Assembly (NCBI RefSeq): GCF_024139115.2
Contig: NW_026943382.1
Coordinates: 124,001 to 188,000, forward strand
Direction of reading: 5' to 3'
DNA from: Armigeres subalbatus
Taxonomy: Eukaryota; Arthropoda; Insecta; Diptera; Culicidae
Length of the DNA: 64,000 bases
Shown: positions 3,526 to 36,174 of the stretch, one piece after another
Layout of the letters: the number at the start of each line of letters is the position of its first letter
How positions within the stretch are numbered: the stretch's first letter is position 1
The notes under the pieces: model-generated
The model's input: the letters and a program-made list of their open reading frames with translations, nothing else
What the model was told of the DNA's origin: nothing
Databases searched by the model: none
Made by a program: the position numbers and the translations under genes

Positions 3526-4841
3526 GGAGCTACCATGGCTCTTCAAGTTTATACCTAAGCATTAAGCGCAACAAGCGAGTAGAAGTAAGCACAGTAGTAA
3601 ATGTACCTAGATAAGTAAGGGTATGCGATAACATACTTTTTCCTAACGAAACGAAACGAAATTTAAAATGTTTATGTTGATTCGGATCGAAACGAAACGA
3701 AATATGGATTTACTTTCGAAACTTCGAAACGAAACGAAATCAAGGTTCATTTGATTCGAAATTTTTCGAAACGAAACGAATTTTCAATTTTTTTTTCGCG
3801 GAATTTTGATTGAATTGGTTTCACATTATGTACTCAATTCGGATTTCACTTTTTTTAAGTCTATAAGTCTATTATAATAACAGAAGAGGCAGTCTGTGAT
3901 AAATCACCGCATTCTCGCCGCATATACCATTGGCGATAAGGCAATAACCCAGCATTTATGCCGCTTTCATATCAGAAAGTATAAAAAAATATAGAAATTG
4001 TGGGCTTTTTCATATACGGATTCAAATGTCGTTTAAAACCTTAGTTCACTTAAGAATAATGTAATTATGCTGAAGCATACTTCATATTGTCTTGTCAGCG
4101 TGGTTTTATAGTATTGAGCTAATTCAAAATCAGAAAATTAATGCTTAAATTTATTTTTTTATTTAGTGGGATACTCAATTATGTATCCACATCTGTCAGG
4201 CGCATACACAGATAGATAATTGATATTTGAAAAGTGCGTAACAGCCAAAACTTATTCCTTCTAATTATTCGTCAACATATATATAGATAGCTTACATTTG
4301 CTCACTAGAAGAATGTTGAGCACCTTTCTAAAAAGCACAAAGATATGTACTTCAGATTGAATTTCACAGACCCATAGTCTTATATACAATCAGCACGGCG
4401 AACTGAGCTATTGTCTGTGTGTCCTTGGCATATGAGAACAGCTGTTTTAGTCATTATGAGCTACAAGCAATCATAAGTAAAGAACTTTCAGCAATTTTAA
4501 TGATATTTCAACCCGTCCTGGATTTTTTTGCTAATTCCATTCGAAATCTAGAAATTTAGAAATGTCCACAAATCTTCAATGTTCATTACATATTGTGGAA
4601 ATAGTCAAAGAAGACCTAAGCTTGATTAACTGTACACATCGTAATTGCTAATCATGATTGTTCGAAAAACAGCAAATATGCACAGCCCACCAATTAAATA
4701 ATATTCTTGGGATACAAAGAAGCTATTCTTATTGTATACTTGCTTCGGAGTTTCCAAACCATGACCAATAACGATGCTGGTCACGTCCAGTCAATTTAGG
4801 ATTAGGAGAGGAAAATTAGTTTAACACTCATTGTTATAAAA

Positions 4842-7609: not shown

Positions 7610-8429
7610 TTACACAAGACCGAGGAACGCTCTGCATCTCCGTGAGCGCTACGGGAAAGGAATCGTTGGTTAGTAGAGAAGGTAATTCATGTGAAGGTCC
7701 TAGGTAAGCGACTGAATATTTATTGTAAACAAAGTTATTTTGAAAACATGAAGACGAAAACTCTGTTTCAAATCAATCCAACAGAATTCAATGTGATTCG
7801 TTTAATAAGCTTCTACAATACGATTGATTCCGCACTAAATAATTCTGTGCTCTTTGCTGCAAACATTAGCTTTATCACTTCGCGTTCTCCCACACTAGAT
7901 GGCGTGACCAGCATCTACAAGATGCCATCCCATGAACAGCAGCAACACGATCGATTCCGCATTCATATTGAACAAATAGTAAAAAATATCACAAAATATA
8001 AATTTGAAACTTGGAAACACTGAATTCGTTTTATAGAAGAAAACTACATACGTATTGTCGACTAATAATGGGGTTATGTAGTAAGCGTTAATAGAAAAAA
8101 TCGTATAACCTAATGTTTTGAAAACAACTTAACGATTTTGCATAGCGGCGCAGCCAAAATTTTTGATAATATAAATAACGGTTTAAGTTTAAATTTGTTT
8201 CGAAATTCCGCGAAATTCCGTTAAATTTCGTTAGAAGCTAGTTTTTTATAGCGAAATTTTTGTAATTTTACGAAACGAAACGAAATCATGAAATACGATT
8301 TCGCCATGCTAAAATTCCGCGAAATTCCGCGGAATTTCGTTTCGAACCACCTGAAACGAAATTTTTCGAAATACCGCATATGCTTATAGATAAGTACCTA
8401 GATAAATTATTATACCTACGCATAGTATA

Positions 8430-16760: not shown

Positions 16761-16790
16761 GGACGAGCTTGGTGGTCTAGTGGCTACCGC
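16761..16790 (+). mobile_element. 5' half of a split tRNA-derived SINE
   Basis: ggacgagcttggtggtctag and tggctaccgc form a tRNA-like 5' half with an A-box-like motif. It stops at the MITE end at 16791. The matching 3' half is on the minus strand just left of 27312. Joined, the two halves give an acceptor stem (gacgagc with gctcgtc). The last 8 bases, gctaccgc, are the MITE target duplication. Confidence 0.8.
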
Positions 16791-17342
16791 CAGGCATTGA
16801 AAAAAATCAGATCGTGAGTAAAAATCGGCTAAATTCATGCCAACATGATGCTCTACTGCGGCCTAATCGTTGATGCTTTCTAGATCGTTGAAATTTGGTG
16901 TTCGTTGATTCAATTTTCAAAGATCTTCATCGCTCACCAATGGGAGACAACTGAGCGAGGCAAATCACTTGGTAACCTAACAATGAGTTTTGTTACCACA
17001 CGCTGTTAGCAAAATGTTTTCAGACATTAGGAAAATTAAGTCCGTTATGAGAATGGAACACTGACACACTGCATGGGAGGCTTTGATACATTCTCTGCTC
17101 CATCCCAGCAACTTGAAAGCAGAATGAAAAAAGCAGAACACCTGATGTGTTTTGGTTTTATTCTAGTAGAGCAAGCGTAACACAAATGCAGTCGTAGATT
17201 CCCTCTGTTGCCTTACACAGCAACGATTGCTCATAATCGTTGTTTGATATCCGTCTGAGCAAGGCTGTTCATTCACTGGCATAGGATGCCATGATTGAAT
17301 TAGATCAATGCTCGTCCGCTCTACTCACGCTTTCAATGCCTG
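16791..17342 (+). mobile_element. CAGGCATT-family MITE, copy 1 (inversion breakpoint A)
   Basis: A 552-bp element with terminal inverted repeats caggcattgaaa and tttcaatgcctg. The left flank is gctaccgc (16783-16790) and the right flank gtctgggt (17343-17350). These do not match each other, but each matches a flank of copy 2 (27312-30557) in reverse complement. Copy 2 is in the opposite orientation. This pattern marks recombination between the two copies. No transposase is present. Confidence 0.92.
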
Positions 17343-18530
17343 GTCTGGGTAGACTTTGGCACCACCGTCTTCGCTGGCACGCCCTCGGTCGATTCGACCT
17401 TGCCCAAATCCGCGAATTCTTGGGCCTCAGTCTGGGTAGACCTCGACTCCACAGATTTCACGGGTTCGCACTTGGCCGTCCCGACCGCCGTTTCCAGCTT
17501 GGCGTCCAACATCGACTTACGAAGTTTCAGCAAGCTCCTCTTGAGTTCCTTACTGATATTATGCTTCGATGACGCAAAGTCGATGATGGCGTCCAGCCAA
17601 GGGGCAACTAACTCTAAACTTTGCGTTAGTATTACTCATGTTCCTACAATAGTATTTCGTGAAATTTCTTGTATCCATGATTTTCCACAAACAAACATTC
17701 GGTTGCTAGTTCGGTTGTTATGGCGTTTGCCAGTAAGTTGTTGAAACACAGTTTTCCCCTGTTTTGGAAACACCTGATTACTACTGTCTACAGATTCTAG
17801 GAAACTTTCAAACTGCATTTTATATTCCTTATGCCATCAAACCAAAACAGGAGCCTAAGAGATTGTCCAAAAAGTGTTAGTCATAGAAAAAGTTGTTCAG
17901 TGATTTTTTAGAACTTGAAGGAGACAGAAATTATGTGTTGCATAAAACGGGGTAGACTGTGTTGACTGTGTGGCGTTATGCTTCATGCTTTCCCAACCAG
18001 GGCTTTTTGATCAATTTGCCATAGATACGACGTAGTTTTTCGCTAGTATTTGTTAGTATTTCTGAATACTGCCGAAAGTTTAGAGTTAGTTGCCCCTTGC
18101 GTCCAGCTGTTCCGTCGCCACCTAGAAGGCCGAAAGCCCATCGCGTTTGCGGTTCATCGCTTTCACAAACCATGGGCCGTCTATAACCTCTACCGGCGGA
18201 GCCTGGGAGATGGTTAAGTGACCCACGCTGGCGCTGCGCGCTGAGCTGCCGACTATTGCCTCTGGCCTCCCCCACCTCTTGTGAAGGGGTTGTCGCCTAC
18301 ACTACTACCACTAATTGAAGAATTGACTTGGTTTTCCATTTTGGTCCCACGAGTTGCTCGGGAAAAGAGGTCCACCACGCCAGAGCCAAGCATGACGTGA
18401 TAAGGGACAATTACTTTGAAGGGTGCCCAGGTACCGCACAGGCTCCGTTAAAGACCTAGCTCATTATTTCACCCCCCTGGCCATGCATCCCCTCAGCACG
18501 AGTCGCTTAACGCCTTAACGCCACATTTAT
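17343..18530 (-). pseudogene. R1-like non-LTR retrotransposon, 5' part (5'UTR and start of ORF1), displaced by inversion
   Basis: On the minus strand the element starts at 18530, next to ctggcttggaca (18531-18542), which is the reverse complement of the 3' flank tgtccaaaccag (36175-36186) with one mismatch. A possible ORF1 start ATG is at 18339. Frameshifts follow, then the ORF1 segments LDAIIDFASSKHNISKELKR and STQTEAQEFADLGKVES. It ends at CCAAAGTCTACCCAGAC (PKSTQT) at the MITE border. The frame resumes with TEAQVFAGTSG on the plus strand after 30558. A 501-bp element interrupts it at 17598-18098. ORF1 of this clade encodes a nucleic-acid-binding Gag-like protein. The copy is inactive. Confidence 0.85.
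17598..18098. mobile_element. Nested 501-bp TIR element inside R1 ORF1
   Basis: The ends aaggggcaactaactctaaa and its reverse complement at 18078-18098 face each other. The 9-bp sequence gcgtccagc flanks both sides (17589-17597 and 18099-18107). Removing the element and one duplication joins the ORF1 codons for GLLGGDGTAG to the following LDAIIDF region, apart from a frame change. No transposase is present. Confidence 0.85.
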
Positions 18531-18627
18531 CTGGCTTGGACAAACCAATAATCACGCAAATGAGCTCTAAGGCTTGATAAATCGAAATATTGTATGAAGA
18601 TTTTTAACTATTCAACCAATTATAATA
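18531..18627. other. Short flank of the R1-like element
   Basis: It contains the 5' target duplication of the R1-like element (18531-18542) and otherwise AT-rich sequence. Confidence 0.6.
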
Positions 18628-19144
18628 TTCACTGTCATCGAGTTTACTACAATTCCATTTAATTCCACCAAATTGTATTACTTTTACATACACGTATTTC
18701 GACCTCAACTGTAAGGTCGTCTTCAGTGTCTCGTACTTGACTCGACTCAAGTCTGTTGACTTGTAAGGTCGTCTTCAGTGTCTCGACTTGAGTCGAGTCA
18801 AGTACGAGACGACCTTACACACTTAATTTTTTTAACCGGGATCTCAGCAAAATGGTCAACTTTTACCGAGATTCGCACAGCTGTGCACCAGCAAACATGT
18901 TTTTTGCGAGATTTTTGTCAAAAGTGCTGAAAATCAGCAAATGATTTGCCAAAAATCAGTTAACAAATATCATTTTTGCCGGAATATCACCTTTTTATTT
19001 TGTTGGCGTACGGCTGTGCGGATTTTTGCCGAGCTGCAGAAATAAAAACTAAGTGTGTACAGTTAAGTCGAAATACGTATATGTAAAAGTAATACGATTT
19101 GGTGGAATTAAATGGAATTGTAGTAAACTCGTCTCATGACAGTG
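18628..19144. mobile_element. Foldback element with ends TTCACTGTCAT
   Basis: The left end ttcactgtcat and right end atgacagtgaa are inverted. The arms include gtttactacaattccattta and cacgtatttcgacct against their complements near 19070-19130. The internal palindromic block cttgagtcgagtcaagtacg near 18786 suggests a partial duplication of the arm. The centre (18832-19050) is a different sequence. A diverged fragment lies at 8430-8580. Confidence 0.8.
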
Positions 19145-22100
19145 AAATATTTCCTAAATAGTTGTCTTTTAAAATCTCACATTTTCTTACCTGGCTTTAT
19201 GGAAATGCGATGGTTTTTCTCTTCTAGTTCTAAGTCGGATATTAGTATTCCCTGTGTCAGTTAATTTATGTAGTAAATGCATTAATTTATGAAGTAAATG
19301 CATCGTAGTTCAACAAGTCAGTTAAATTGTTGAGACGTTCCGAAGTGGGGCATATATGCTTTTCCGTCTACCGTTCTCGGAAAAGGCGGTTTTCCTCGTG
19401 TGATCTAGTCTTTCCCATTTTTTTCCAAATGGAGCTCGTTTTCGTACCACTGCTTGAATAGAACCGGATGATGGTTGTATAACTGACAACAAATGATGTA
19501 CATTGTTGTTTAAATGTTGGTTACTAGTCTTACTAACTACCCAGTACCCATGAAAGACAAAATTGTTTCAGCGCGGTATTCTATGTTACCAACTATTATC
19601 ATATTTAATAAAAGCAGAATCATCATACAGAGTGTAATTACTTGTTTGTCATAGACAATATTCACACTTTGGTATGATTAGGAGATTGAAGTGCAATAAT
19701 TCTGTAATTTGAATACTGTATTGTGGTTGTATTGTCTATTTTGTCATTGATATTAGAACAATATTATCTCTAACATCCTATGTTATTTATTTGTTTTCTA
19801 TTATTCAAAGAATAGGTTTTAGGTTATAGTTGGTTGAGGTTGCAAATTGCATATTTGATGATAATTTATTTGGATGTAATCAGGAGGAAATTCATGGTAT
19901 ATATGGTTGCATATTAGTGAAATATCGAACGCAAAAATCATTAAATTTGTAACTGCTATAACTTTCGATTCCCTAGATGAAATATTTTGAAATTTTCACA
20001 GCAGACGCCTGGATATTATATCTTTCGAAAGGCGAGTTCAGAATATGTGGACATTTTTTTTCGTTAATAACCGTCACAGGCACACCGTGCCTTGGGTAAC
20101 TATTGGCATTGTATTAAGCCCAGTTGACTTGGTAGAACAATTGGTTGGAGCTTCAAAATGATTTGAAGAACATAGAACAACCTGTTTGGACATATCCAAT
20201 TCTTAAATCATGCACCTGGGCTCTAAGGACATGTATAGATCTCATGGGTTGCTATTGCCTTTGTATTGATCCCAGTTGACTTGGTAGAACAGCAATAAAA
20301 TCGTTCTTGCGCGATATTTGTGTGCAATTTCCGTCCATATAAAAATGGCCAACTAACGATCCTTCCTCCGACGATTACAGGATGTATGTGTAGCAGATCA
20401 ACAATCTGAGATCAATTTCGAAAAATTTATGAGCAGACGATTATTTTGGTAATATAAACATGTCAATTTGGCTGAGATATTTCTAAGTCAAATCCGGGTC
20501 AATATGACCCGAACGCCGCAAGTGGGAGTTTTTTAAGCCTTTCAGAAACGTCGAACAAATTACGTCAATGCTCATAAACATAGTTTTCCACGAAATAAAA
20601 AAGGTCAAGAAGTTTCAGACAGTTATTACAATTTGAAAGTGCGATTCGCGTCATATTGACCCGAATACGTTAGGGAAAAGAAACATGAATTAATAAAAAA
20701 AATTTCTTGTACCTGTACCTAAGATGGAAAATTCTCAACCTCCTATCTAGTTTCAGTTGCAAATTTATAATAATGGTGAAAGCTGTTCAACCAAAACTAG
20801 GTAGAAGATTTTTGCATTTTGTTATCCGCTTGGATGAAATAGTCTAGATATTACGACCAATCAACATCGCGGAACGGTCCCTATTTCCAACCATCCGTCT
20901 GAACATGGTTTTGAACAAGCACAAAATACCCGCGAAGGATATCGAGCACCATCCCGGGTTTATGTGTGTGGTTGGTTCGTGCTCACGCGTTTTGCTACCT
21001 GAACTGCATATTTGCATTGGTTCTGATCCTGGGGATAGCCTGGACACGATCGGTTGGGGGAAGGCCCGCCGTCACAGGGACAAACAACAGCCCCGGAAGC
21101 TACGTTGATTGTTGACTCGCACAAACTCGGTACATGGAGGAATATAGTTTACGCACCGGTACGCACGTAATTTTAGTTTAATTCCGGTGTATATTTTACT
21201 AATCTGCTTTCAGCGTCAATAAACATTCGCCGATTGTCGTCGATTGCCGGTGTGCAAATTCCGTACACTCAAACATGGTGATGATGCCGATGCCGGTCGA
21301 TTGTTGTTTGGCATATGAAATGAGCAAACGCCGAGCGGCCGGCGGTATGATTGCATTTTTACCCGCCCACCAAACAGTCAGGATATGCAAACCCTTCCAT
21401 CGATTATGACGATGGAATCTATTATGTCGTGAAGCGGTGGTCAACAGTGATTTCAATTGGCAGTCTATGAGGGCAAATTTGAGTAGATGATCAAAGCCTA
21501 ATTAAACTGCTGCTACCAAATTGATGTCATCAACAACTAGTAAACTGACGTGGCCCATAATTAGGGTTCAAACTGTGCATTATGTTTACTAATGATACTA
21601 ATGATTGCATTAAATTTAGGCCAGACATTTGTTGCTTCGGTTGCTACCAAGCCCGGAAATACGTTGACATCAGTGATATGACGCCGGAGCCACTCACAGT
21701 GATGAATTCACATTCAAATGCACAGACGTTGAAAAGCCTTCCTAATGGCTCTTTTGTTTTGACTAACTTGAGGCTGAGACAAACTATCCAACGATATTTA
21801 AATGGCAGTGAAATGCCTCTTTGTTGTAGTGGGTGCCATTCGTCCTCCTGTAGTGGCCATTTGTCTGTTCGCATACTAAATATTTGCATGCTCGTTGGTC
21901 TGAGCCTGTGGCTAGCCGGAAGCCAGCTCAGGACAGGAAGCTGGCTAAACTAAATCAAGTGCTTTAGCTACTATATACATCGGTTTGTGTATCTTCAGTA
22001 CACACAACAGGAACAATAGCGAGAAGTTAGTTCGCTCATCTTGTACCTAGAAGCGTGTTTGGATACCTTCGGATGAACTAAGATGATTCATGGACACATA

Positions 22101-22287
22101 GCTACATATGAGATAAGCCGGTTGTATGAATTGAAGAAGAGTAATCACTTCAATAACTAAAGAGACAAACATTTTCCTGCACAATCTTCTACGGATAAAA
22201 TTTATATACTTTACCGAGACTTAATATTATGACAAATTAGCCTCTGTTAACACTACAAGTACCGAGCCAAGATTTGTAACGTAAAGT
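19145..22287. other. 3.1-kb region with no supported gene; small TIR element at 20487-20680
   Basis: Most of this is unique or old repeat sequence. At 20487-20680, cgggtcaatatgacccgaac and the complement of cgcgtcatattgacccgaat are inverted ends of a ~190-bp element. The phrase cccagttgacttggtagaac occurs twice (about 20120 and 20269), a partial duplication. The 20844-21480 patch is GC-richer and open on both strands for up to 85 codons, but no domain is recognisable. The frame at 21582-21953 has no support. Confidence 0.5.
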
Positions 22288-22485
22288 ACCAAGGTCGCAA
22301 AAAACGTGGAATGGCAACGTTGAGGATAAAGATATCAGCCGTTTTTTCAATCAAATCTCTTGATTTTTTTTACAGAACAATCTTTGGAATGTCCGAAAAT
22401 CGGCTACTAAAGGCAGATAACATTTTCATGTAACGGCCACTGAGTACCAGCCGGACAGTTCCGTTCCACGTTTTTTACAGTCTGT
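22288..22485. mobile_element. Short MITE (about 190 bp)
   Basis: Near 22294 the sequence gcaaaaaacgtggaatgg is inverted relative to ccgttccacgttttttacag near 22462-22481. This fits a small MITE. The exact ends and target duplication are not resolved. Confidence 0.55.
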
Positions 22486-22689
22486 TTTTGGCTATCCAGC
22501 ATGTTGTGTACAAGTCGTACCACACTACTTGTATGCACAATTATATGAAGCAGGTGAAACGTTTGAATAAATCATAGTTCAGTCATGAAAATCTAAGAAT
22601 TAGAATTCCGAAAAATTCACTCCAGAATCTATCCGAAACAATACTTAAAGCGTTCGAAGTATGACGACTTGAAATATTCAATGCAAAGA

Positions 22690-23285
22690 TCGTAACGTAG
22701 GGAGGAGGTGGTTTGAATATTGGTATTTCCGCGAGATATAGGGGAAGAGGCCCCAAAACACCCCCCGATGCAAAACGCCTTTTGTGGTTTCCCTCATATT
22801 TACCGTCATTAAAATGTCCGTAACAAAACTAGATCTAAAATTATGTAGGATAGGCGAAGAAAGTTTCAAAAAAGTGTATGAGAAGGTCGGAAAAACCGAA
22901 AAATTCCTCATTTTGAAGAAACATCTAACATTTTGGCGAGGCAAAACGCCCTAGTGGCAATAACCTACAAAGTACTTGCGTCTCCCTCCACGGACTATCC
23001 ATACTAGAATGCTGATTCACCGACGCGTGGTACTTTGTTCCCTAGGAGCTGCCAGCTAAAAGGCGTTTTGCCTCATGAGTTTTCCGGCAACAGAATATCA
23101 CCACTTTTTTGAAATGTGAATATTATCAATATGATTTTTGACAATTTTTGAATGGCATCAACTAGCTATCTTGTTTAACTGATGCATAATGTAAAAATAC
23201 CAATGAATAGCGTTACAAATAAGACAATAGAGCAGTGTTTGCTTAGCTAGGGCATATTGCCCCCCATTTCCCTACGTTATGAACA
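22690..23285. mobile_element. Possible TIR element with ends TAACGTAGGGA
   Basis: cgtaacgtagggagg at the left and ccctacgttatgaac at the right are inverted. The interior repeats gcaaaacgcc and ggcgttttgcc near 22772, 22942 and 23060. It is probably an old MITE; the target duplication was not found. Confidence 0.45.
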
Positions 23286-23702
23286 GAAATTTTTTTGAAT
23301 GAGCAAACAACCGACAGAAAAAGTGAATACAATCTTTTATTATAATTGAAATTGTGGAAAGTAGGTACAAAATTAGTTCAATTTTGCATTGCTTACAGAA
23401 TAAATCATCTAATGAATATTGAAAAATAATCCATTTTTAATCGCTCAAACTAGCATTAGCATTAACATTGAGCAATTCGCACAAATTCGTAGGTGGTACA
23501 AGTCAAGACTATTTATTGTATGATATTGCCATCACTTCCATCCGTTACCACAGATATTGATTTGGGATTATTCGCTATCTCTTAGATGAAAGTAATGCAC
23601 TCTCCAATAGCCGAGATCTGTCCAGGCCACATCCTTGTGAACGCTGAGGAAAGGGAAGGATGATTACTTGGGCACCTACCTAAGAAAGATGCAGAGAACT
23701 CT
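23286..23702. other. AT-rich spacer
   Basis: No gene or repeat end was recognised. Confidence 0.5.
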
Positions 23703-26700
23703 TACTTGATACTTGATGGGCTACAGCTCTTCGATGAACCTACGCCGAATGGAGTATCCTTCTCCACTGGACTCGATCCTGGGCCAATCGCTTCCAGTCG
23801 CCCTGAACATTGAGCGCCCTCAGGTCCTCTTCAACTGCAAAAAGCCATCGTGTACGCGGCCTTCCACGAAGCCTGCGGCCTCTTCCGGGTTCTCTACTAA
23901 ATATTATCTTCGCTTGTCGTTCTTCCGGCATACGAACAACGTGACCAGCCCACCGTAGTCTGCCGTGTTGTATAAGCTTAATAATATCCAGCCCTTTATA
24001 CACCTGGTACAATTCGTGATTCATGCGACGCCGCCAGATACCGTTCTCCTGTTTACCGCCGAGTATTGTCCGCAGCACCTTACGCTCAAACACTCCGAGA
24101 GCTCTCCGATCAGCCTCCTTTAACGTCCATGTCTCATGGCCGTATAAAGCCACCGGAAGAATCAGAGTAGTATACAGCGCGAGTTTTGTTTTCGTTTGCA
24201 GACTACGGGACTTAAGCTGGTTACGAAGTTCGAGAGTGCATCACCCTGCTTTAATCCATCTAAGGTAACAAATGACGTCGATATTTCATCCGCAACCCTT
24301 ACACTTGATTTCGATCCGTCCAACGTTATACGAATCAGCCGTATCAGTTTCGCCGGAAAACCATGTTCAAGCATAATTTGCCATAATTCATTCCGTTTCA
24401 CTGAATCGTACGCCGCCTTGAAATCAATAAACAGATGATGTGTCTGCAAGTTGTACTCCCGGAATTTATCAAGGATTTGTCTCAGGGTAAACATTTGATC
24501 CGTCGTTGATCGGCCCTCACGAAAACCTGCTTGGTATTCGCCGACGAAGGACTCTTCAAGCGGTCTCAATCTGTTGAACAGAATACGGGACATAATTTTG
24601 TACGCCGAATTAAGGAGGGTTATTCCTCGGTAATTGGCGCACTCCAGTCTGTGCCCTTTCTTAAAGAGAGGGCAAATGAGGCCGTCCAACCAGCTAGCAG
24701 TCATTTCCTCGTCTTCCCATATTTTCGACATAATATGGTGCAGAGCTTCGTAAAGCTGCTCACTGCCATGTTTGAGAAGTTCAGCCGGGAGCTGGTCCTT
24801 CCCCGCAGCCTTATTGTTTTTCAGCTCTTTGACAGCTTTTTTAACCTCATCTAGTGTAGGTGACTCCACAGCTTGTCCATCGTCACTAATATCTAGTCTG
24901 TTCTCCGATGCACCGTCACTTCCTCCATTCAACAAAGTCTCGAAGTGTTGCTTCCACCTGGCAGCCACTTCAGTTTTATCTGTCAGCAAATTCCCTTGTT
25001 GGTCGTTGCACATGACGGGAGATGGCGCTGTCTTTCTCCGCACGCCATTGACAGATTCATAAAACCTCCGCATATCGTTCTGCTCCATTTTTTCCTGCGC
25101 CTCACTAATCACTTGTTCTTCGTACTCTTTTTTCTTTCTGCGGTGGGTTCGTTTTTCGGCTGCTCTTGCTTCTTTGTACCGATCTCTATTCGATCGGGTA
25201 CCTGACACCAACATCCGGCTTCTGGCAACGTTCTTCTCGTCTGTCACTCTCTGACACTCCACATCGAACCAACCCGCCCTGGGTCGCCTCTGTGCAGTGC
25301 CTACCACTTCTCGTGCTGTTGTGCTCACCGCTCCATGGATCGACTCCCACAGATCGTTGATGTTGTCTCTAACGTTGATTGCACTTATCCGTTCGTCGAG
25401 CTTCTGGCGGTACTCAGCCGATACTCCTTCCGCCGACAATCGCTGGATATTGTTACGCATCGTTCGCTGTGATCTTTCGTTCGATACAGTTGACAACCGT
25501 GATCGAATTTTACTGACAACGAGGTAGTGATCAGAGTCAATGTTCGGACCTCTGAATGTCCGCACATCGATAACATCCGAGAAATGGCGCCCATCCACCA
25601 GAACATGGTCTATCTGGTTGCAAGTTTCACCATTTGGGTGTCTCCAGGTGTGCTTTCGGATGTTCTTTCGTGCAAAGTAGGTGCTACTGATGGCCATCCC
25701 TCTGGCAGCAGCAAAATTTACTAGCCGTAGGCCGTTGTCATTGGTAGCGGGTGAAGGCTCTCCCTACCGATTATGGGACGGAAAAAGTCCTCTTTACCGA
25801 CCTGAGCGTTAGCGTCTCCGATAACAATTTTTACGCCATGCTTTGGGCACTCTCCATAGGCTTTATCAAGACATTCATAAAACGTGTCCTTCACGTCGTC
25901 GGATTTATCGTTTGTCGGTGCGTACACGTTGATTAGGCTGTAATTGAAGAATTTGCCCCGTATCCTCAACACACAGATTCGTTCGCTAATGGGTTTCCAC
26001 CGCATCACTCGCTTCATCTGCTTGCCCATCACTACGAAACCAACTCCATGCTCTGCTTTTTCACCGCCGCTGTGATAGATGTTATACTTGAATACAGTAT
26101 TGGTCGTGGGGTCCACGGAATTCACGTTCTCCGGATCTAGGCCATCGGACTTCTTGAATAGCAGCCACGTTCACTCCAACCTTCTGCAGTTCACGAGCCA
26201 GAAGGCTCACTCGTCCAGGTTCATTTAGGGTCCTGACATTCCAGGTACCGAGTTTCCAATCATAGTCCTTATTTCGTTGCCGGGTCGGTTGCCAAAAATA
26301 ACGTTCTCTTTTTCTTCTATCTCCATTTTTCGTGGTATTTGAGAGGCTTCAGTAAGCTACCTTACCGGGGTCGCGTTTCCTACATCACGATGATGGGGCT
26401 GCCACCTTAGGTATAGCTGACGCGATACAGCATTTCGTTAATCAGCCGCTGGGTACCAGGCAGACGCTGTTTGAGCCGCACCTCCTGGTGAACAGACGCT
26501 CGAGGCGTACCTTCTCACTCTAGCTGATGTCAGAAGGACAACAGTGCCCAGGCTGCACTACCAGCTAAGTACACAACCCTTAGCTGGCGGTATTTGTCAT
26601 CGGACGACCCGTGGAAGCGTGAGATAGGGACTTGTGGGGACCATAGCTCTGTTGGGCGCTCCTTCCTTGATGTCAACCCACCATTTTGCAGCCCAGAGAA
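23703..26700 (-). pseudogene. RTE-clade non-LTR retrotransposon, nearly full length, catalytic core deleted
   Basis: Minus-strand frames give an APE-type endonuclease (LGTWNVRTLNEPG near 26260, YAPTNDKSDDVKDTFYE, GDANAQVGKEDFF, then QIDHVLVDGRHF and DSDHYLVVSKIR). A reverse transcriptase follows (GLICPLFKKGHRLECANYRG, LFIDFKAAYDSVKR, GLKQGDALSN). It ends with the tail typical of RTE (LYGHETWTLKEADRRALGVF, GRLRWAGHVVRMPEERQAK, QDRVQWRRILHSA). Frameshifts lie near 26120 and 25710. At about 24225 GDALSN joins directly to NQLKSRSLQTKTK, so the segment with the FADD catalytic aspartates is gone. GC-rich sequence to about 26700 is probably its 5'UTR. The 3' tail ends near tacttgatacttga at 23706-23719. 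Confidence 0.9.
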
Positions 26701-27149
26701 CTCTACGACCTCTCATATGTGCTACGGGCAGAACATTAAATATTCACTTTCATGAAGCATATTCGTTCCTACTTTTGGCAATCGTATTTTGATAATTCAA
26801 AACATAGAATGACTTACTCAGTTTACTTTTTTCAATTGATTACCACTGAATATGGTAGCTGCACGCGAGAAAAACATAATTAGCCTTGATTGTACTGAGA
26901 TTTGCCTCTAAAAATGCCCCTCAATTAAACGTCAGGATTGGATCTATGCGTGTATTTATTTAAATCATCAAACATGTGATCAGTTTTACGATAATTTGAT
27001 AATTTGTGGAATTCAAATAAATACTCACTGACCCATATTCATTCCGAAAATTGACTGTGCAGAGCCGAATATGAATATGTTTAGAAGTGAAGTGACAAAG
27101 AAGGCCGATGGGCTTCATAAAAAATATTCGAATATTTAAAGCTCTGGCT
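26701..27149. other. AT-rich spacer
   Basis: No gene or recognisable element ends. Confidence 0.5.
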
Positions 27150-27311
27150 ACGGGTGGTTAGTGGATTGTTATTGTGGAAGGATGTAACGGTAGGAATAGT
27201 TTTGGTAGAACGTGAAACACAGAAAGAACTAAGATAGAAAATACAAAATAGAAAAGAGACGAGCCTGAAATTAAACCTACGACCTCCTGCTTATAAGGCA
27301 GAAGCGGTAAC
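27150..27311 (-). mobile_element. 3' half and body of the split tRNA-derived SINE
   Basis: On the minus strand, starting at 27311, the sequence reads gttaccgcttctgcc, a B-box-like gtaggtttaatttc, then ggctcgtc, which pairs with the 5' half at 16761-16790 as a tRNA-like acceptor stem. A tRNA-unrelated body follows. The first 8 bases, gttaccgc, match the 5' half's last 8 (gctaccgc) at 7 of 8 positions, which is the MITE target duplication. Confidence 0.75.
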
Positions 27312-27340
27312 CAGGCATTGAAAGAGTGAATGGAGCGGAC

Positions 27341-27889
27341 CTAGGATAGAATGTGACAAGTAGTCAGTAGAAATCGTACCGATTTGCTGTCATAATCGTA
27401 CCGGTTGCTGATTGGTTGAATATGACAGCCGATTACTTCGATTGGTAGCGGCGCGTTTTCCGTAGGGCAGCATGTTGTTAGTTTGGCCGTGTTGCAGGTT
27501 TTTAAAGTTGATATTAAGCAAAATACGAAAATGTTTGAGTTCCAGTATTTTGGTAAGAAATAAATTTATATTGAACTGCAAACGCCATATAAATTATTCT
27601 CAAGGGTTGTACAGGTTTAAAACTGTTGATTTTAAGCATAATCATTCACCTTTCCGTCATTTTCGATCTAAAAGTCATTTTTTCAGTAGCGAAAACTTCT
27701 CTCTGTTAGTCTTTCACTTCTCTTACATTAATACTGGATGTAACGGAAAGAAAAACATCAAATTTTGATACATGATATTTGGAAGATTTTGTACCAAATT
27801 ACTTTGGCTGCACTGGCGAACACCTCGTCAGAGCAACCGACTAAAAAACAACAAGGCAGTCTCAATTGAGTTGTCACATCCTATCCTAG
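27341..27889. mobile_element. 549-bp hAT-style MITE nested in copy 2
   Basis: The ends ctaggatagaatgtgacaa and ttgtcacatcctatcctag are inverted repeats with one mismatch. The flanks are gagcggac at 27333-27340 and 27890-27897, an exact 8-bp duplication. No transposase is present; the frame at 27472-27768 has no domain. Confidence 0.92.
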
Positions 27890-28045
27890 GAGCGGACGAG
27901 CATTGATCTAATTCAATCATAGCATCCTATGCCAGTGAGTGAACAGCCTTGCTCAGATGGATACCAAACAACGATTATGAGCAATCGTTGCTGTGTAAAC
28001 AACGAGCAACAGAGTTCGCCAAGCCAAACTTGGTATGGTATCTAG

Positions 28046-30137
28046 TAAGGGTATGCGATAACACACTTTTTCCTAACGAAACGAAACGAAACGAAATTTA
28101 AAATGTCTTTGTTGATTCGGATCGAATCGAAACGAAATATGGATTTACTTTCGAAACTTCGAAACGAAACGAAATCAAGGTTCATTTGATTCGAAATTTT
28201 TCGAAACGAAACGAAATTTTAAATTTTTTTCCGCTTAATTTTGATTAAATTGGTTTTACGCACGCAATTCGGATTTCACTTTTTCAAAGTCAAATAACTG
28301 TTTTAACATATACAGATGTGCTCGACTTGCGGTTAGCAATCAGCTCGACGAACTGAGCTATTGTCTGTGTGTCCTTGGCATATGAGAACAGCTGTTATGG
28401 TCAGTATGAGCTAAAAGCAGAAAGGAGGCTTCCGAGCCTCTTGAAAACAGGCCTCCGAGGCTTTCGAGAGGGCTTCGAAGCTCTTAAAGAGGCCTTCCGA
28501 GCCTTTTGAAAAGAGCTTTTCGAGCCTTTTAAAAGAAGGAGAAAAGAAAAAAAAGGAAGTTTACAGAAAAAAGCTTAAAAGAAGATTTCCGGGCATCTAG
28601 AAAGGAGGATTCCAACCCTCTTTAGAGTTGAAAAGATCCGAGGCTTTTCAAAGAAGCAGAAAAAAAAGGAAATTTCTAAAAAAAACAGCTTGGCTTCCGG
28701 GCCTCTTAAAAGAAAGTGTTCGAACCTCTTGAAATGATGCTTCCGTGTCACTTGAAAGGCGGCTTCCGAGCTACTTGGAAAGATGCTTCCGAGAAGGGTA
28801 GAAGGATGCTTCCAATTCTCTTGCAACAAAGCAACTGAATCATATTCTTCACATATTCTTGACATATTATTCAACATTATGTTTCAACCCGGAAGATTGC
28901 ATAGAAGATTTTTAAAATTTGTTCATTCGAGGTTTTGCCCTTTTGATCTTTTGTTCCACATCTCTTCATCCATTGTACTGATGATGGAGGACAGGATTCA
29001 AAAGGCCATGATTTACTGATCGCCATGCATAGGGTAAGGGAGGTATTTTGGACCACCAGTTCGACGCCTTATATTTTGGACCACTGAGAGCAAATTCCTC
29101 TTGGTTTAAAATAAGAGCCCCGTAAGGGTGGTCCAAAATACATCCTTTATCTTATTATGACAAAGTTTAGAAATAAAAAAATACAAAGCTTTATCAATAA
29201 GTTTGGATTAAAATTGTAATTCATCCGCCATTAAGCATTTCGTCCGAGGTACCCCTGGGCCCGGCGAAAGTAACCCCAGCGGTACATGTACCCCAGGTTG
29301 AAAATCCCTGTTATAAAAGACCGAGAAATGCTCTGCATCTCCGTGAGCGCTACGGGAAAATAATCGTTGGTTAGTAGAAAAGGTAATTCATGTGAAGCCC
29401 CTTGGTAAGCGAATAAATATTCATTGTAAACTTGTTTTGAAAACAAGAAGACGAAAACTGTGTCAACACAATTCAATGTGCTTCATTTATTAAGCTTCTA
29501 CAATACGATCGATTCCGCACTAAATAAATCTGTGCTCTTCGATGCAGACATTAGTTTCATCACTTCGCGTTCTCCCACACTAGCTGGCGTTATCAGCATC
29601 TACAAGATCGATTGTACGCTGGTTATACAAATTTCTGCTACGCGAGGTAGATTTTTTTTTCACTTCGCGTTCTCCCGGACTAGCTGCCGTCGCATGACCA
29701 GCAGCAACACGATTGTTTCCGCATTCATATTGAACAAACAGTAAAAAATATTACAAAATATAAATTTGAAACTTGGAAACACTGAAGACGTTTTACAGAA
29801 GAAAACTACATACGTATTTGTCGAATAAGAATGGGGTTATGTAGTAAGCGTTAATAGAATAAATTGTATAACCTAAAGTTTTGAAAACAACTTAACGATT
29901 TTGTTCAGCGGCGCAGCCAAAATTTTTGATAATATAAAGAATATAAAGTTTAAATTTGTTTCGAAATTCCGCGGAATTCCGTTAAATTTCGTTAGAAGCT
30001 AGTTTTTTCTAGCGAAATTTTTGTAATTTTACGAAACGAAACGAAATCAACAAATGCGATTTCGCCATGCTAAAATTCCGCGGAATTTCGTTTCGAACCA
30101 CCTGAAACGAAATTTTTCGAAATACCGCATATGCTTA
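28046..30137. mobile_element. hAT-like composite element, copy 2 (2.09 kb, internally deleted)
   Basis: The ends taagggtatgcgata and taccgcatatgctta are the same as in 3616-8386. The flanks are gtatctag at 28038-28045 and 30138-30145, an exact 8-bp duplication that differs from copy 1. Homology to copy 1 runs outside and inside the nested Charlie-like element. The right end of that inner element sits at 29310, followed by ttataaaa. Its left end and almost all of the minisatellite are missing (junction near 28418). Confidence 0.92.
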
Positions 30138-30726
30138 GTATCTAGGGAATCTACGACTGCATTTGTGTTACGCTTGCTCTACTAGAATAAAACCAAAACA
30201 CATCAGGTGTTCTGCTTTATTCACTCTGCTTTCAAGTTGCTGGGATGGAGCAGAGAATGTATCAAAGCCTCCCATGCAGTGTGTCAGTGTTCCATTCTCA
30301 TAACGGACTTAATTTTCCTAATGTCTGAAAACATTTTTCTAACAGCGTGTGGTAACAACACTCATTGTTAGGTTACCAAGTGATTTGCCTCGCTCAGTTG
30401 TCTCCCATTGGTGAGCGATGAAGATCTTTAAACATTGAATCAACGAACACCAAATTTCAACGATCTAGAAAGCATCAACGATTAGGCCGCAGTAGAGCAT
30501 CATGTTGGCATGAATTTAGCCGATTTTTACTCACGATCTGATTTTTTTCAATGCCTGACCCAGACTGAGGCTCAAGTATTCGCGGGCACGTCGGGGGTGA
30601 CTGCTCCAACGGAGCAGACACAAAAACGGGGGAGACAGTCCCCAGGGGATGAGATCCCTGGGGGCCGCTCCAAAACGCGGAGGGTTACTACCCCAAACAA
30701 GAGTAGTGGGGCTGGGAAGCTGAACC

Positions 30727-30950
30727 CCGGCTTCGTGGCCGTGCGGTTAGCGACGTCAATCGTCTAAACGCATGTGCTGTGGAGTGTGGGTTCGACTCCC
30801 GCCCCGGTAAGGAGAAAACTTTTCGTAAAGCGAAAAGTTCTTCACTGGTCCACTGGGTGATGTGTAAATGTCCTTGTCCGTTGTCTAATGCTAAATGTTA
30901 AGTGTTCAGTCTTTGCGACCTCTGGCCGAAGACGGTGACTCTGTCTTTAG
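30727..30950 (+). mobile_element. tRNA-derived SINE nested in R1 ORF1
   Basis: A tRNA-like head with an A-box-like tggccgtgcggttagcg and a B box gggttcgactcccg is followed by a small hairpin (acttttcgtaaagcgaaaagt, split as acttttcg and cgaaaagt) and a short body ending near gactctgtcttt. It interrupts the ORF1 frame. Target duplication is not firmly resolved (gaacc lies on both sides). Confidence 0.8.
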
Positions 30951-31445
30951 GAACCTCCAAAACCGAGGGAGGAAGGACCTGGAAAGGTCCGTCCACCCAG
31001 GAAAGACGGTGGTAAGGGGTTACGGCAGGCTGAGAGCTCTCAGCCGCCCCAGACCAGGGAAATAGAGGGGGATGACGCCTCCTGGACCCTGGTCAAGAAC
31101 AAGAGGAAACCGAAGACGTCAAGGGCCGAAAAGAAGGCCCAGGCGAATGAGGGTAGCAAGAAGTCTAGGGTAGGCGCCAATCGCTCCAGGGGCAATGCCA
31201 CGGTCAGTCATCACGGCGGACGAGGCTAAGTACTCGGACGTCTTGAAGGCGATGAGGAGTCTCGTCACGGCACTGCGGCGACAGTGTGAAGTGGAGACGC
31301 CCACCGCTGCCGTTCGGCTACGGAAAGGTCCGGCAGGGACACAGGTAGCATTGGTTCGGCTATCTACAGCGGAAGCCTCCAAGGTAGTCAAGTAAGGAGC
31401 GTCAAGGTGGGGTGTTCGGTATGCCCTGTGGGCATATATGAGCAA

Positions 31446-32113
31446 TAGAGTGATTCAAATTTTGACTTTTTCGCTCCCCTATGCTTAAACAATTGGTTTT
31501 GTCATTTTAATAGACCTCCTAAAGTTTTAGCTAATTTGGAAGTAATTTGATTGTGCACGCGTCGTTTGAAGATTGTATGGAAATTGCTATGGAAATCGCC
31601 ACTTACGTGAAAGAATGTCTCGTGAGGTGGCCCACAAACTATTTGAATATAATTTACACTTCAGCTTTTTAGAATACTTCTTAAGCTGAAAGTCAGTGAT
31701 TGTTGCGAAACGATCTGACTGTTGTAAGCAAAGTTATAAAGAAAACTAAATTACTCATTGTTGATATTGATGTTATTCTTTTACATGTTAAATTGAATTT
31801 TCCACCATTCGGTTTTTCCGTAATAACTTTTCATGCTAGCATCAAATCGTTTCGCAACAAAGACGATCTGTTTCCTTGCTAAATTTTCTATATTGGCAGT
31901 GCATTCATGTATTTTAGAACTCACTGAACAACGCTGCGGAACGGGTTTCCACAAAAAATAAAGTTTTTATAGTAATTTTCATTCAAACTTCAAACTGCAT
32001 GTGCTCAGTTAAATTACAACCAAATTAGCTAAAAATTTAGGAAGATTATTTTAATAGCAAATGCCATCGTTTAAGCATGGGGGAGCGAAAAAGTCAAAAT
32101 TTGAATCACTCTA
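31446..32113. mobile_element. Complete TAGAGTGATTC hAT-like MITE nested in R1 ORF1
   Basis: The ends tagagtgattcaaattttg and caaaatttgaatcactcta are inverted repeats extending about 40 bp. The flanks are atgagcaa at 31438-31445 and 32114-32121, an exact 8-bp duplication. Removing the element and one duplication joins the ORF1 codons VGIYEQ to PEVCFKC in frame. Four partial copies occur elsewhere in the window. Confidence 0.95.
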
Positions 32114-33800
32114 ATGAGCAACCCGAAGTTTGCTTCAAGTGCCTGGAACCGGGGCACAAGCAATGGGACTGCAAAGACCCTGACAGAAGCAAGCTCTGTC
32201 GACGCTGCGGATTGGAGGGACATAAGGCACAATTCTGCACGAACCCTCCCAACTGTTTGATCTGTTCCAGCAAAGCTGCGAACAGCAAGCACCCCATGGG
32301 GGGTTCGAAGTGCCCAGCGTTTAAGCATGCTGCAAAATCACAGTGCAGGTAACGCAGCTAAACCTGAAACACTGTGATGCAGCCCAGCAACTGCTGTGTC
32401 AGACAGTTGCTGAATGGAGGACGGATATCACCATCATAGCAGATCCTTACCGGGTACCCGCCAGGAACGGTAATTGGGTCACCGATGGGTCTCAAATGGC
32501 GGCGATATGGACAACGGGGAAATACCCAATCCAAAAGTTGGTGTCTTCGGCACACGAGGGCTTCGTCATTGGCAAAATCAACGGGGTCTTCTTCTGCAGC
32601 TGCTATGCGCCTCCCCGATGGTCGATCGAGCAGTTCGGTCGAATGGTAGATTGTTTGACGGCTAACTTGATGGGGCGTAGGCCGGTGGTGAGAGCGGGTT
32701 ACTTCAACGCTTGGGCCGTGGAATGGGGTAGCCAACCACGAATCAACGGGGGCAGATCCTGCTGGAATCACTGGCCATGTTGGATGAGGACTTGGCTAAT
32801 GTCGGTACCAAAAGTACCTACAGCTGGAACGGGGCCAAGTCGATTATCGACGTTACGTTCTGGAGCCCTGGCCAAACGAGTAGCTCGAACTGGAGGGTAG
32901 ATGATGGCTACACTCACAGCGACCACCTGGCGGTTCGCTACAGTATCGACTATACGACCAGCATTCAGCGGACGGAAGAAGGGCCGAGGCCTAGCCCTCG
33001 TATGTGGAAGACATCATACTTCGACGACGAGGTGTTTAAGGAAGCGCTCCGCCGCGAGCACAATACTCTTGGTCTGAGCGGCGAGCAGCCGATAACAGTC
33101 CACCCTAGGAATGGGAGGCCACCGGCTTACTGGTGGACTCAAGCAATTGCGAAGGGAGGCGGATGCAGCGAGCACGCACAGAAGAGGAGTGTGTTGAACG
33201 ACGGGTGGCGTTCGTGGCTGCTAGAGCCGCTGAGATTAGATCAAACAAAAAAGCCTGCTTCGAGGGCCTGTGTCAAAGTGCCAACGCGAATCCATGGGGT
33301 GACGCCTATAGGGTCGTAATGGCCAAGACACGTGGGGTGATGGCCCCTACAGAGCGGTCTCCAGAGATGCTGGAGAGGATCTTCGCGGGGCTCTTCCCAC
33401 GTCACGACCCAAGTCCATGGCCTCCCTTTGTGGAGCTGCCAGGAACCAGGGTGGCCGACGAGGAAAGAGTAACTGTGGCGGAACTTGCGGGGATTGCACA
33501 GTCCCTTACTGTAGGTAAGGCGCCAGGACCGGATGGTATTCCAAACCTGGCCATGAAAGCGGCCGTTGCTGAGGCTCCCAAGATGTTCAGATCTGTCATG
33601 CAGAGATGTCTGGGGGAGGGAGTCTTCCCTGAAGCATGGAAAAGGCAGAGCTTGGTCCTATTGCCAAAGGCGGGAAAACCACCGGGGGATCCATCGGCAT
33701 ATAGACCAATATGCCTGCTTGATACGGCGGGGAAGGTGCTCGAGAAGATCATCCTTAACAGGTTGTTGATATGCACGGAGGGTGCGGATGGTCTATCGAG

Positions 33801-34097
33801 TAGAAGACTCGGAACATCTGTTATTCCATTGTCCGGCAATTTTTAGAAAGAGATTACAGTTCTTCAACAAGGGGCTGATAGAACCCTCAGAAGTTTGGAG
33901 AACAAGTCCCAAAATGGTAGTACGATTCATCAGAACCATAATACCGCATTGGGATAACGCTGGTAGTCAAGGTAATGCAGTTGCTCCAAATAGTAATGAT
34001 GCGTCAACTTGACAAAGCTAGATCAAATGGGGCATATATCACAATAGATCTAACAAATGGTCGCAGTGATTAAAATACCCAACAAGGAAAAAAAACC
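33801..34097 (+). pseudogene. 5'-truncated non-LTR retrotransposon 3' end nested in the R1 reverse transcriptase
   Basis: The frame reads VYRVEDSEHLLFHCPAIFRK and continues for about 55 residues to a stop. This is the C-terminal zinc-finger end of another Jockey/R1-type retrotransposon protein. It ends in a short A-rich tail (34085-34095). Flanking atcgag occurs at 33795-33800 and 34098-34103. About three residues of the host reverse transcriptase appear lost at the join (LSS to FRKAKSTVDAIL). Confidence 0.8.
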
Positions 34098-36174
34098 ATC
34101 GAGCTTCCGAAAGGCTAAGTCGACCGTAGACGCTATCTTGTCGGTTACCAAATCCGCGGAGATAGCTATCCAGCGTAAGAGGAGGGGAGTTCGCTATTGT
34201 GTAGTAGTGACTCTCGACGTGAGGAATGCTTTCAATAGTGCCAGTTGGACAGCTATTGCAGATGCGCTCCTGCGTCTTGGAATTCCCGAGTACCTGTACA
34301 AGATTCTCGGAAGCTACTTCCAGAATCGAGTACTGGTATACGACACGGAGGCGGGTCGGAAGTGCGTTGACATAACCTCAGGGGTTCCGCAAGGTTCAAT
34401 ACTGGGTCCGGTGATATGGAACGTCATGTACGACGGTGTCTTGAGGTTGATGTTCCAGGTGGGCGTGGTAATTCTCGGCTTCGCTGATGATATTACGCTG
34501 GAGGTCTACGGCGAATCGATCGAAGAGGTGGAGTTGACTGCAGCCCACTCGATCGCAATTGTGGAGGAGTGGATGAGTTCCAGGAAGTTAGAACTGGCTC
34601 ACCACAAGACTGAGGTGGTTGTTGTTAACAACCGAATGTCGGAGCAACAAGCGGTGATAAGGGCAGGCAATTGCACGGTCACCTCTGAACGCTCCATCAA
34701 ACTCTTGGGGGTAATGATCGACGATAAGCTCACCTTTGGTAGTTACGTCAATTACGCCTGCAAGCGTGCCTCCACAGCTATAGTGGCATTGTCCCGGATG
34801 ATGTCCAATAGCTCTGCGGTTTATGCCAGCAAGCGCAAGCTTCTGGTTAGTGTCGCTCTGTCCATACTGAAGTATGGGGGCACGGCCCTGCGTATTAACT
34901 GCTACAGAACGAAGTTAAAAAGTACGTATAGGCTCATGTGCCTAAGAGTTGCGAGCGCGTACCGTACCGTGTCGCACGATGCACTTTGCGTCATCACCGG
35001 TATGATGCCTATTGACATCGTTATCGGTGAAGATATAGAGTGCTTCGAAATGCGCGGCACGAGAGGCATCCATAGGACTGTCAGGTTGGCCTCAATGGTC
35101 AAATGGCAGCGTGCGTGGGATAGTTCCACTAAGGGTAGATGGACACATAGGTTGATACCGGAGATAGGTACGTGGATCAAGAGGCGCCATGGGGAAATCA
35201 CTTTCCACCTGACCCAGGTCCTTACAGGCCATGGTTGCTTTAGACAGTACCTACACCTGTTCGGACACTCGGCCTCGCCCGAGTGTCCGGTGTGCGCAGG
35301 TTTAGAGGAAACGGCGGAACACGTGTTGTTCGTGTGCCCGCGTTTTCGCACAATGCGTGACCACATGCTTGCCACATGTGGTCTGGACACTACCCCGGAC
35401 AACCTAGTCCGGAGGATGTGTAAAGTTGAAGTTGGCTGGAACGCCGTTTTATCGGCTATCGTCCAAACCGTCTCGGAGCTACACAGAAGGTGGCGCGTGG
35501 ACTCGAGGAATGGCTAGTTCAGGCGCAAATAAGAGGTGGTCCAAGGGTTCGGAGTCGGCTTTATGGGTCATACCGGTGCTCTGTGGTCGAACTCGATCCT
35601 TTTATCGAACAAGTGGCCGCGTGAAGAACAACATGGTATCGTCGCTTTCGCGGCGGGCGGGTTCCGAGCCCGAGGACGGAAAGGGGTCCTCGTCAAGGCT
35701 GGGGCAGGCGTAGGCACCGCGTCGGCAAGTCCCTCTGTGTGCTGGTGAATAGGCCCTATCGCAGAGAGGTCCATTTGTCGGCATCATCATTCTTGATACC
35801 AGTCGTGCAGAGGGAAGCAGGCGCGAAGTCGACCCTTTCCACCTTCCGAGGACATAGGGCCACCTGGAACATAAGGCCACCTGGAAATCCGGCAACGCGC
35901 TGGCACGATACCATGGTGTTCTTCTAAAAAAGCGAGTCACGATGTTCGGTGCTGCAAGGACACGCAGCTAACCTCGAGGGTGCGTTATGCACTTTCTGGT
36001 TGTACCGAAGGGACGATGGGCTTGGCGGCAATGAAAACGGTTAAGCGGGTCGGGGATGCAGTCCTGCCTCCCTCGTTTGTTGTTGGAGGTGGCCCCTAGC
36101 CCTGCACTTCCTGGACAACCCAGGATGTCTGTTAAGCAGATTCCCCCTCCATTGCTTAGGAAGAAAAAAAAATA

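What the first reader, a model, noticed from the sequence alone, without database searches (positions are those of the whole stretch)
16791..30557. A ~10-kb inversion mediated by two inverted copies of one MITE, shown by swapped 8-bp target duplications
Copy 1 (16791-17342) is flanked by gctaccgc and gtctgggt. Copy 2 (27312-30557, opposite orientation) is flanked by gcggtaac and acccagac. Neither copy has matching flanks of its own. The left flank of copy 1 is the reverse complement of the left flank of copy 2 (7 of 8), and the right flanks are exact reverse complements. Recombination between two inverted copies, each originally with its own duplication, predicts exactly this and inverts 17343-27311.
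Basis: seen in the sequence. Interest (0 to 1): 0.86.

Follow-up and report, generated by a model that had tools for sequence, protein, structure and literature searches.

The report
Small mosquito inversion between MITE copies
A roughly 10,000-base piece of mosquito DNA was flipped end for end, most likely by recombination between two oppositely oriented copies of one small mobile element; this is a clear new example of a known way in which genomes are rearranged.

Summary
Two inverted copies of a 552-bp element with 12-bp terminal repeats lie at 16791-17342 and 27312-30557. Neither has matching 8-bp flanks of its own; the flanks pair across the copies, 8 of 8 and 7 of 8. Copy 2 is longer because two hAT-like insertions, each with its own intact 8-bp duplication, sit inside it.

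Independent evidence: a public Armigeres subalbatus protein (LOC134226841) matches the window in pieces, residues 1-57 on the minus strand ending at copy 1 and 55-114 on the plus strand starting at copy 2. Re-inverting 17343-27311 makes one gapless match over residues 1-114, 92% identical. So an R1-like retrotransposon was split. At the other join a SINE-like sequence appears to be restored, but I could not confirm that.

The best mechanism is ectopic recombination, as reported for Galileo and BuT5 in Drosophila. Aberrant transposition from a single copy (hybrid element insertion) gives the same flanks and is not excluded; the chimera test needs other genomic copies, and the genome search failed in all 18 attempts. 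An assembly flip is unlikely but unchecked. "Aedes" is not supported; Armigeres is likelier.

The parts
16761..16790 (+). 5' part of a SINE-like (tRNA-derived) sequence, ending in the 8-bp duplication GCTACCGC
   Evidence: seen; start and SINE naming by inspection and recall; ARAGORN found no tRNA in the joined sequence
16783..16790 (+). target duplication 1, copy a (GCTACCGC)
16791..17342 (+). MITE copy 1, 552 bp, 12-bp terminal inverted repeats CAGGCATTGAAA
17343..17350 (-). target duplication 2, copy a (ACCCAGAC on the minus strand)
17343..27311 (.). segment inferred to be inverted, 9969 bp between the two MITE copies
17343..18527 (-). 5' part of an R1-like non-LTR retrotransposon (5' UTR and first part of the gag-like frame), now in the inverted segment; itself interrupted by another insertion at 17598-18098
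   Evidence: the 5' end at about 18527 rests on the candidate duplication
18528..18544 (-). candidate 5' target duplication of the retrotransposon, matching the sequence after its poly-A at 36173 (14 of 17)
   Evidence: 4 of 400 random segments score as high, and an unrelated place at 20194 (minus) also matches 14 of 17
27148..27311 (-). rest of the SINE-like sequence, beginning with target duplication 1 copy b (GTTACCGC on the minus strand)
   Evidence: far end set where the match of a neighbouring repeat stops; no independent copy found
27312..30557 (-). MITE copy 2 with two nested insertions
27341..27889 (.). nested hAT-like insertion 1, 549 bp, duplication GAGCGGAC on both sides
28046..30137 (.). 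nested hAT-like insertion 2, 2092 bp, duplication GTATCTAG on both sides; a relative lies at 3616-8386
30558..30565 (+). target duplication 2, copy b (ACCCAGAC)
30558..36172 (+). 3' part of the same R1-like retrotransposon: rest of the gag-like frame, endonuclease and reverse transcriptase, poly-A

Best explanation
One copy of a hAT-like MITE inserted into a SINE-like sequence and a second copy, in the opposite orientation, inserted into the gag-like frame of an R1-like retrotransposon about 10 kb away. Crossing-over between the two copies by the host's homologous recombination then inverted the segment between them, so each MITE kept one flank of its own site and took one from the other. Two more hAT-like elements landed in copy 2, before or after the inversion. 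Shown: inverted copies, crossed flanks, and the colinearity of a split coding sequence after re-inversion. Inferred: that there were two older copies, that crossing-over was the act, and that the site-1 sequence is a SINE.
For: Crossed flanks 8 of 8 and 7 of 8, about 2e-8 by chance. P0001 (Armigeres subalbatus LOC134226841) aligns gapless across the restored join, 103 of 110 residues identical. Against the window as it stands it breaks at the MITEs: residues 1-57 at 17512..17342 minus, 55-114 at 30558..30737 plus; the re-inverted join gives one match 1-114, the two joins as they stand give only halves. The motif STQTEAQxFA occurs once inside the left half and once across the restored join. A candidate duplication of the whole retrotransposon is split between 18544 and 36173 in the orientation that the inversion predicts (suggestive only). 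Three other hAT-like insertions that I checked in the window (27341-27889, 28046-30137, 3616-8386) have their own matching 8-bp duplications. The copies are not identical, 14 of 552 positions and two indels, which fits two older copies more easily than one freshly duplicated.
Against: Chimerism of the copies, the defining test, could not be done: no third copy of the family is in the window and the genome search did not complete. Uneven divergence along the MITE is weak: a split chosen by eye gave Fisher P 0.010 (rough column counts), but with the break point left free 230 of 5000 permutations are as uneven, and the best split is then near the end (11 of 531 against 3 of 21 positions). At site 1 the restored SINE has no second copy or match, no tRNA call, a fold no better than 189 of 2000 random joins, and no duplication of its own. 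The open frame across the site-2 join is not remarkable by length alone (426 of 2000 random joins as long). The retrotransposon's candidate duplication has an equally good 17-mer match elsewhere, at 20194 on the minus strand.
Confidence: 0.72

Rival explanations
1. Hybrid element insertion (aberrant hAT transposition): a single MITE in the SINE-like sequence; after replication one end from each sister copy was used together and inserted 10 kb away in the retrotransposon, inverting the segment between and leaving a MITE at both ends.
For: Predicts the same flank pattern: the old duplication split between the two copies and a new one likewise. Its outcome is called strikingly similar to ectopic recombination, apart from identical copies, in PMC2775673; alternative transpositions including sister chromatid transposition are documented for Ac/Ds (PMC8225341, section 15), which are hAT elements. 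Needs one prior insertion instead of two. The newer duplication would be the perfect one and the older the 7 of 8, as seen, but one mismatch is no real evidence.
Against: The copies should have been identical at birth; they now differ at 14 of 552 positions and by two indels, though later mutation could do this. Needs active transposase.
Confidence: 0.18
2. Assembly flip: in the living genome both MITEs have their own duplications and the segment is not inverted; the assembler turned it round between the inverted repeats.
For: Inverted repeats are classic flip points; one published Ar. subalbatus assembly used 6.9 million ONT reads with 15.9 Gb (passage in PMC12333114), which by my arithmetic is about 2.3 kb a read. 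I do not know which assembly the window is from.
Against: Copy 1 is only 552 bp, which ordinary long reads cross; the copies differ by 14 substitutions, two indels and 2.6 kb of nested insertions, so they are easily told apart.
Confidence: 0.06
3. Independent insertions into unrelated copies of the same SINE and retrotransposon families, with flanks lost, no inversion.
For: Both target sites seem to lie in repetitive families, so similar flanks are commoner than in unique DNA.
Against: It needs complementary halves cut to the base, with the two retrotransposon halves equally close to one relative (93.0% of 57 and 91.7% of 60 residues) and overlapping only by the duplication.
Confidence: 0.02

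Closest known systems
Drosophila buzzatii inversion 2z3 made by Galileo (Delprat et al. 2009, PMC2775673)
   Same: One DNA transposon family at both breakpoints in opposite orientation, exchanged target duplications, nested insertions with their own 8-bp duplications, one of them a hAT element (passages, and section 10 part 1 of 2).
   Different: Galileo is a P-superfamily element with 7-bp duplications and long TIRs; that inversion is a polymorphic chromosomal one; chimerism and the uninverted chromosome were shown there, not here.
Drosophila mojavensis inversion 2s made by the MITE BuT5 (PMC3355041)
   Same: A MITE with exchanged duplications at both breakpoints (passages).
   Different: 9-bp duplications, a fixed inversion, one copy reduced to a 27-bp footprint.
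hAT-derived MITEs at Atlantic cod inversion breakpoints (PMC12368964)
   Same: hAT-derived MITEs proposed to cause inversions by ectopic recombination (passages).
   Different: Tandem MITE arrays at the breakpoints of large inversions; 'target site' and 'TSD' occur 0 times in the held main text, so exchanged duplications were not the evidence.
Ac/Ds alternative transposition inversions in maize (PMC8225341)
   Same: Elements with 8-bp duplications at inversion breakpoints (passages and section 15).
   Different: There the cause is transposase acting on the ends of two elements, with a newly made duplication; here ectopic recombination is favoured but not proven.
Microinversions in Aedes aegypti (PMC7068900)
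   Same: Small inversions in a mosquito of the same tribe; the text gives 23 confirmed microinversions below 500 kb (a legend says 21), median 43 kb (passages).
   Different: No transposon mechanism in the passages I saw; 'target site', 'ectopic' and 'inverted repeat' each occur 0 times in the main text.

Membership tests
TE-mediated inversion by ectopic recombination | copies of one TE at both breakpoints in opposite orientation | tested here: met
TE-mediated inversion by ectopic recombination | target duplications exchanged between the copies | tested here: met
   8 of 8 and 7 of 8; chance rates
TE-mediated inversion by ectopic recombination | interrupted sequence continuous in the uninverted order, site 2 | tested here: met
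   protein P0001
TE-mediated inversion by ectopic recombination | interrupted sequence continuous in the uninverted order, site 1 | tested here: inconclusive
   SINE seen by inspection only; no match found
TE-mediated inversion by ectopic recombination | the two copies are reciprocal chimeras | tested here: inconclusive
   no third copy available (genome search did not complete); divergence pattern weak
TE-mediated inversion by ectopic recombination | uninverted chromosome exists or existed in relatives | not testable with these tools
   no mosquito DNA beyond the window could be searched
hybrid element insertion | copies identical at birth | tested here: inconclusive
   14 of 552 differences plus two indels now; age of the event unknown
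hAT-type MITE | 8-bp target duplications, short terminal inverted repeats, short and non-coding | tested here: met
   8-bp duplications across copies, 12-bp TIR, 552 bp; no stop-to-stop frame of 110 aa or more lies wholly inside it. That hAT elements make 8-bp duplications: passages
hAT-type MITE | ends shared with an autonomous hAT element | not tested
R1-like non-LTR retrotransposon (the interrupted target) | endonuclease and reverse transcriptase domains | tested here: met
   PF14529 and PF00078 above cut-off; two R1-named proteins, 42% identical, among the 120 listed hits

The most novel reading that the evidence does not exclude
A natural animal inversion made by the hAT transposase itself, by hybrid element insertion from a single MITE on sister chromatids, rather than by ectopic recombination; a non-autonomous 552-bp MITE would then be an active rearranger.
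Probability: 0.15. Interest if true: 0.5.

Novelty: new member of a known kind. Interest (0 to 1): 0.35.

Why it matters
Small TE-made inversions are hard to find and date in repeat-rich mosquito genomes. This one is readable base by base, because its breakpoints fall inside other elements whose continuity can be checked. It also suggests a general method: pair the 8-bp duplications of all inverted MITE copies in one assembly to list such inversions without a second genome.

Tried and rejected
Rejected: one long composite transposon from copy 1 to copy 2, because its outer flanks (GCTACCGC and ACCCAGAC) do not match. Rejected as evidence: length of the open frame across the site-2 join (426 of 2000 random joins as long; with the left half fixed 687 of 2000); fold energy of the joined SINE (189 of 2000 random joins as low); ARAGORN on the joined SINE (0 genes; at a lowered threshold the only calls were two weak ones within MITE copy 1 in the as-is control); Rfam on both pieces (no tRNA; nor in the whole window up to E 1); a duplication of the SINE's own (no exact one next to the SINE ends; the best inexact one is matched by 170 of 400 random segments).

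Led nowhere: exact patterns in viral contigs for the SINE and the MITE (0 matches each), a protein-guided scan there (2 stretches matched a pattern, none confirmed), one MITE pattern in genome contigs (0), SINE letters in papers (0 papers), and a protein search with the translated SINE join (no candidate). One paper reading failed because a search term was too short and was repeated with legal terms. A first script looked in too narrow a range for the duplication of the insertion at 17598-18098 and found none; it was then seen directly.
Full report
What is there. Copy 1 (16791-17342, 552 bp) and copy 2 (27312-30557) end in CAGGCATTGAAA and its complement and are in opposite orientation. The repeat tool finds the inverted arms 16791-17204 with 30144-30557 (414 nt, 99%), 17213-17321 with 27890-27998 (109 nt, 96%) and 17314-17344 with 27310-27340 (31 nt, 90%). 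Copy 2 is long because it holds two insertions with their own 8-bp duplications, 27341-27889 (GAGCGGAC) and 28046-30137 (GTATCTAG). Without them the copies differ at 14 of 552 aligned positions, and copy 2 has 31 and 6 extra bases.

Flanks. Copy 1 has GCTACCGC and GTCTGGGT; copy 2 has GCGGTAAC and ACCCAGAC. They pair only crosswise, 7 of 8 and 8 of 8. Random 8-mer pairs match 8 of 8 at 4e-5 and at least 7 of 8 at 6e-4. As a yardstick, three other hAT-like insertions in the window (the two nested ones and a relative of the second at 3616-8386, TAGATAAG on both sides) have matching duplications of their own. These three were the ones met on the way, not a full survey.

Did the flanks belong together? 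Site 2: reading the complement of 17343 onward and then 30566 onward gives an open gag-like frame of 164 codons, with the motif STQTEAQxFA once in the left half and once across the join. A search with window-derived pieces of this protein found one protein at E 0.001 or better among 1816 candidates: P0001, Armigeres subalbatus LOC134226841, 217 aa. It runs gapless across the join, 103 of 110 identical. Against the window as it stands, tblastn places residues 1-57 at 17512..17342 on the minus strand and 55-114 at 30558..30737 on the plus strand, overlapping only by the duplication; then 115-154 at 30954..31073, 197-217 at 32118..32180, and a weak piece 182-198 at 31397..31447. Re-inverted, residues 1-114 form one match at 92%; the joins as they stand give only the two halves. 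A control that did not help: 426 of 2000 random joins in this repeat-rich window have an open frame as long, so the frame alone proves nothing.

The split element is an R1-like non-LTR retrotransposon: downstream frames hold an endonuclease (PF14529) and a reverse transcriptase (PF00078) above Pfam's cut-offs, and the reverse transcriptase matches two R1-named proteins at 42% and an Anopheles moucheti protein at 45%. After its poly-A, at 36173, stands TATGTCCAAACCAGTTA; 18544-18528 on the minus strand reads TTTGTCCAAGCCAGATA, upstream of the gag-like start, in the orientation expected if the inverted segment is turned back. In the best local match 13 of 15 agree; 4 of 400 random 370-nt segments score as high. 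Against it, another place in the window, 20194 on the minus strand, matches the 17-mer equally well, 14 of 17. I count this as suggestive only.

Site 1: the left flank of copy 1 looks like the head of a tRNA-derived SINE and the complement of copy 2's left flank like its continuation. This rests on inspection and recall. ARAGORN finds no tRNA in the joined sequence, the fold energy is reached by 189 of 2000 random joins, Rfam finds none in the pieces, and no second copy was found. So site 1 adds the 7 of 8 duplication but not an independent proof.

Mechanism. Ectopic recombination between two inverted copies explains what is seen and has precedents with the same signature: Galileo in D. buzzatii (PMC2775673, passages and section 10 part 1 of 2) and the MITE BuT5 in D. 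mojavensis (PMC3355041, passages). The Galileo paper warns that hybrid element insertion from one site gives a strikingly similar outcome, except that its two copies are identical where ectopic recombination makes them chimeric (Figure S1 legend). For Ac/Ds, alternative transpositions are documented (PMC8225341 section 15). Here the copies are 2.5% different. Six differences lie in the first 421 positions and eight in the last 131; a split chosen by eye gave Fisher P 0.010, but with the break point left free 230 of 5000 permutations are as uneven, the best split being near the end of the element. That leans to two older copies without deciding it. No third copy lies in the window.

Assembly. 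A flip between the repeats is possible in principle, but copy 1 is short and the copies are distinguishable. I could not see reads. The organism is probably Armigeres subalbatus or a close relative, not Aedes, judged by P0001 alone (tribe Aedini). The words 'inversion' and 'ectopic' occur 0 times in the main text of a published Ar. subalbatus genome paper (PMC12333114, word search only).

Literature. Searches on inversion with target site duplication, ectopic recombination, MITE and Aedes (5 papers), inversion breakpoints with Galileo and related terms (19), MITE with non-allelic homologous recombination (16, of which 15 listed), mosquito inversion breakpoints (16), Aedes aegypti inversions (141, of which 12 listed) and exchanged duplications (2, both Drosophila) showed no such case in a culicine mosquito in the titles or the starts of abstracts listed; I looked inside only six papers, in passages or sections: PMC2775673, PMC8225341, PMC3355041, PMC7068900, PMC12368964 and PMC12333114. 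Microinversions are reported as abundant in Ae. aegypti (PMC7068900). hAT-derived MITEs are proposed to have caused inversions in cod (PMC12368964).

Verdict. The inversion is real as far as the sequence can show it (about 0.9 that it is not an artefact or coincidence). The mechanism is most likely ectopic recombination (0.72), with hybrid element insertion as the live rival (0.18). It is a clean new member of a known kind.

Noticed in passing
28046-30137 and 3616-8386: Two relatives of one hAT-like element with ends TAAGGGTATG / CATATGCTTA; the copy at 3616-8386 is flanked by TAGATAAG on both sides and holds a long tandem array at about 5050-6670 whose units also occur in the short copy.
   Followed up: partly
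17598-18098: Another insertion, with inverted ends around GGGGCAACTAAC, lies in the gag-like frame within the inverted segment and is flanked on both sides by the 9-mer GCGTCCAGC.
   Followed up: partly
30738-30953: An insert of about 216 bp, SINE-like by eye, interrupts the gag-like frame; the relative P0001 lacks it. No exact direct duplication of 7 or more bases was found around it.
   Followed up: partly
23740-26170: A second, different non-LTR retrotransposon lies on the minus strand inside the inverted segment; of three frames tested there, one has a reverse transcriptase match (PF00078) and two have none. Host genes were not sought further.
   Followed up: no
41770-44137: Long tandem array with open frames on both strands (repeats such as RNFRRNSW and GTSGGIPG).
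   Followed up: no
26728-27147 and 1446-1875: Two copies (about 68% alike) of an unnamed repeat; the first abuts the tail of the SINE-like sequence next to copy 2.
   Followed up: no
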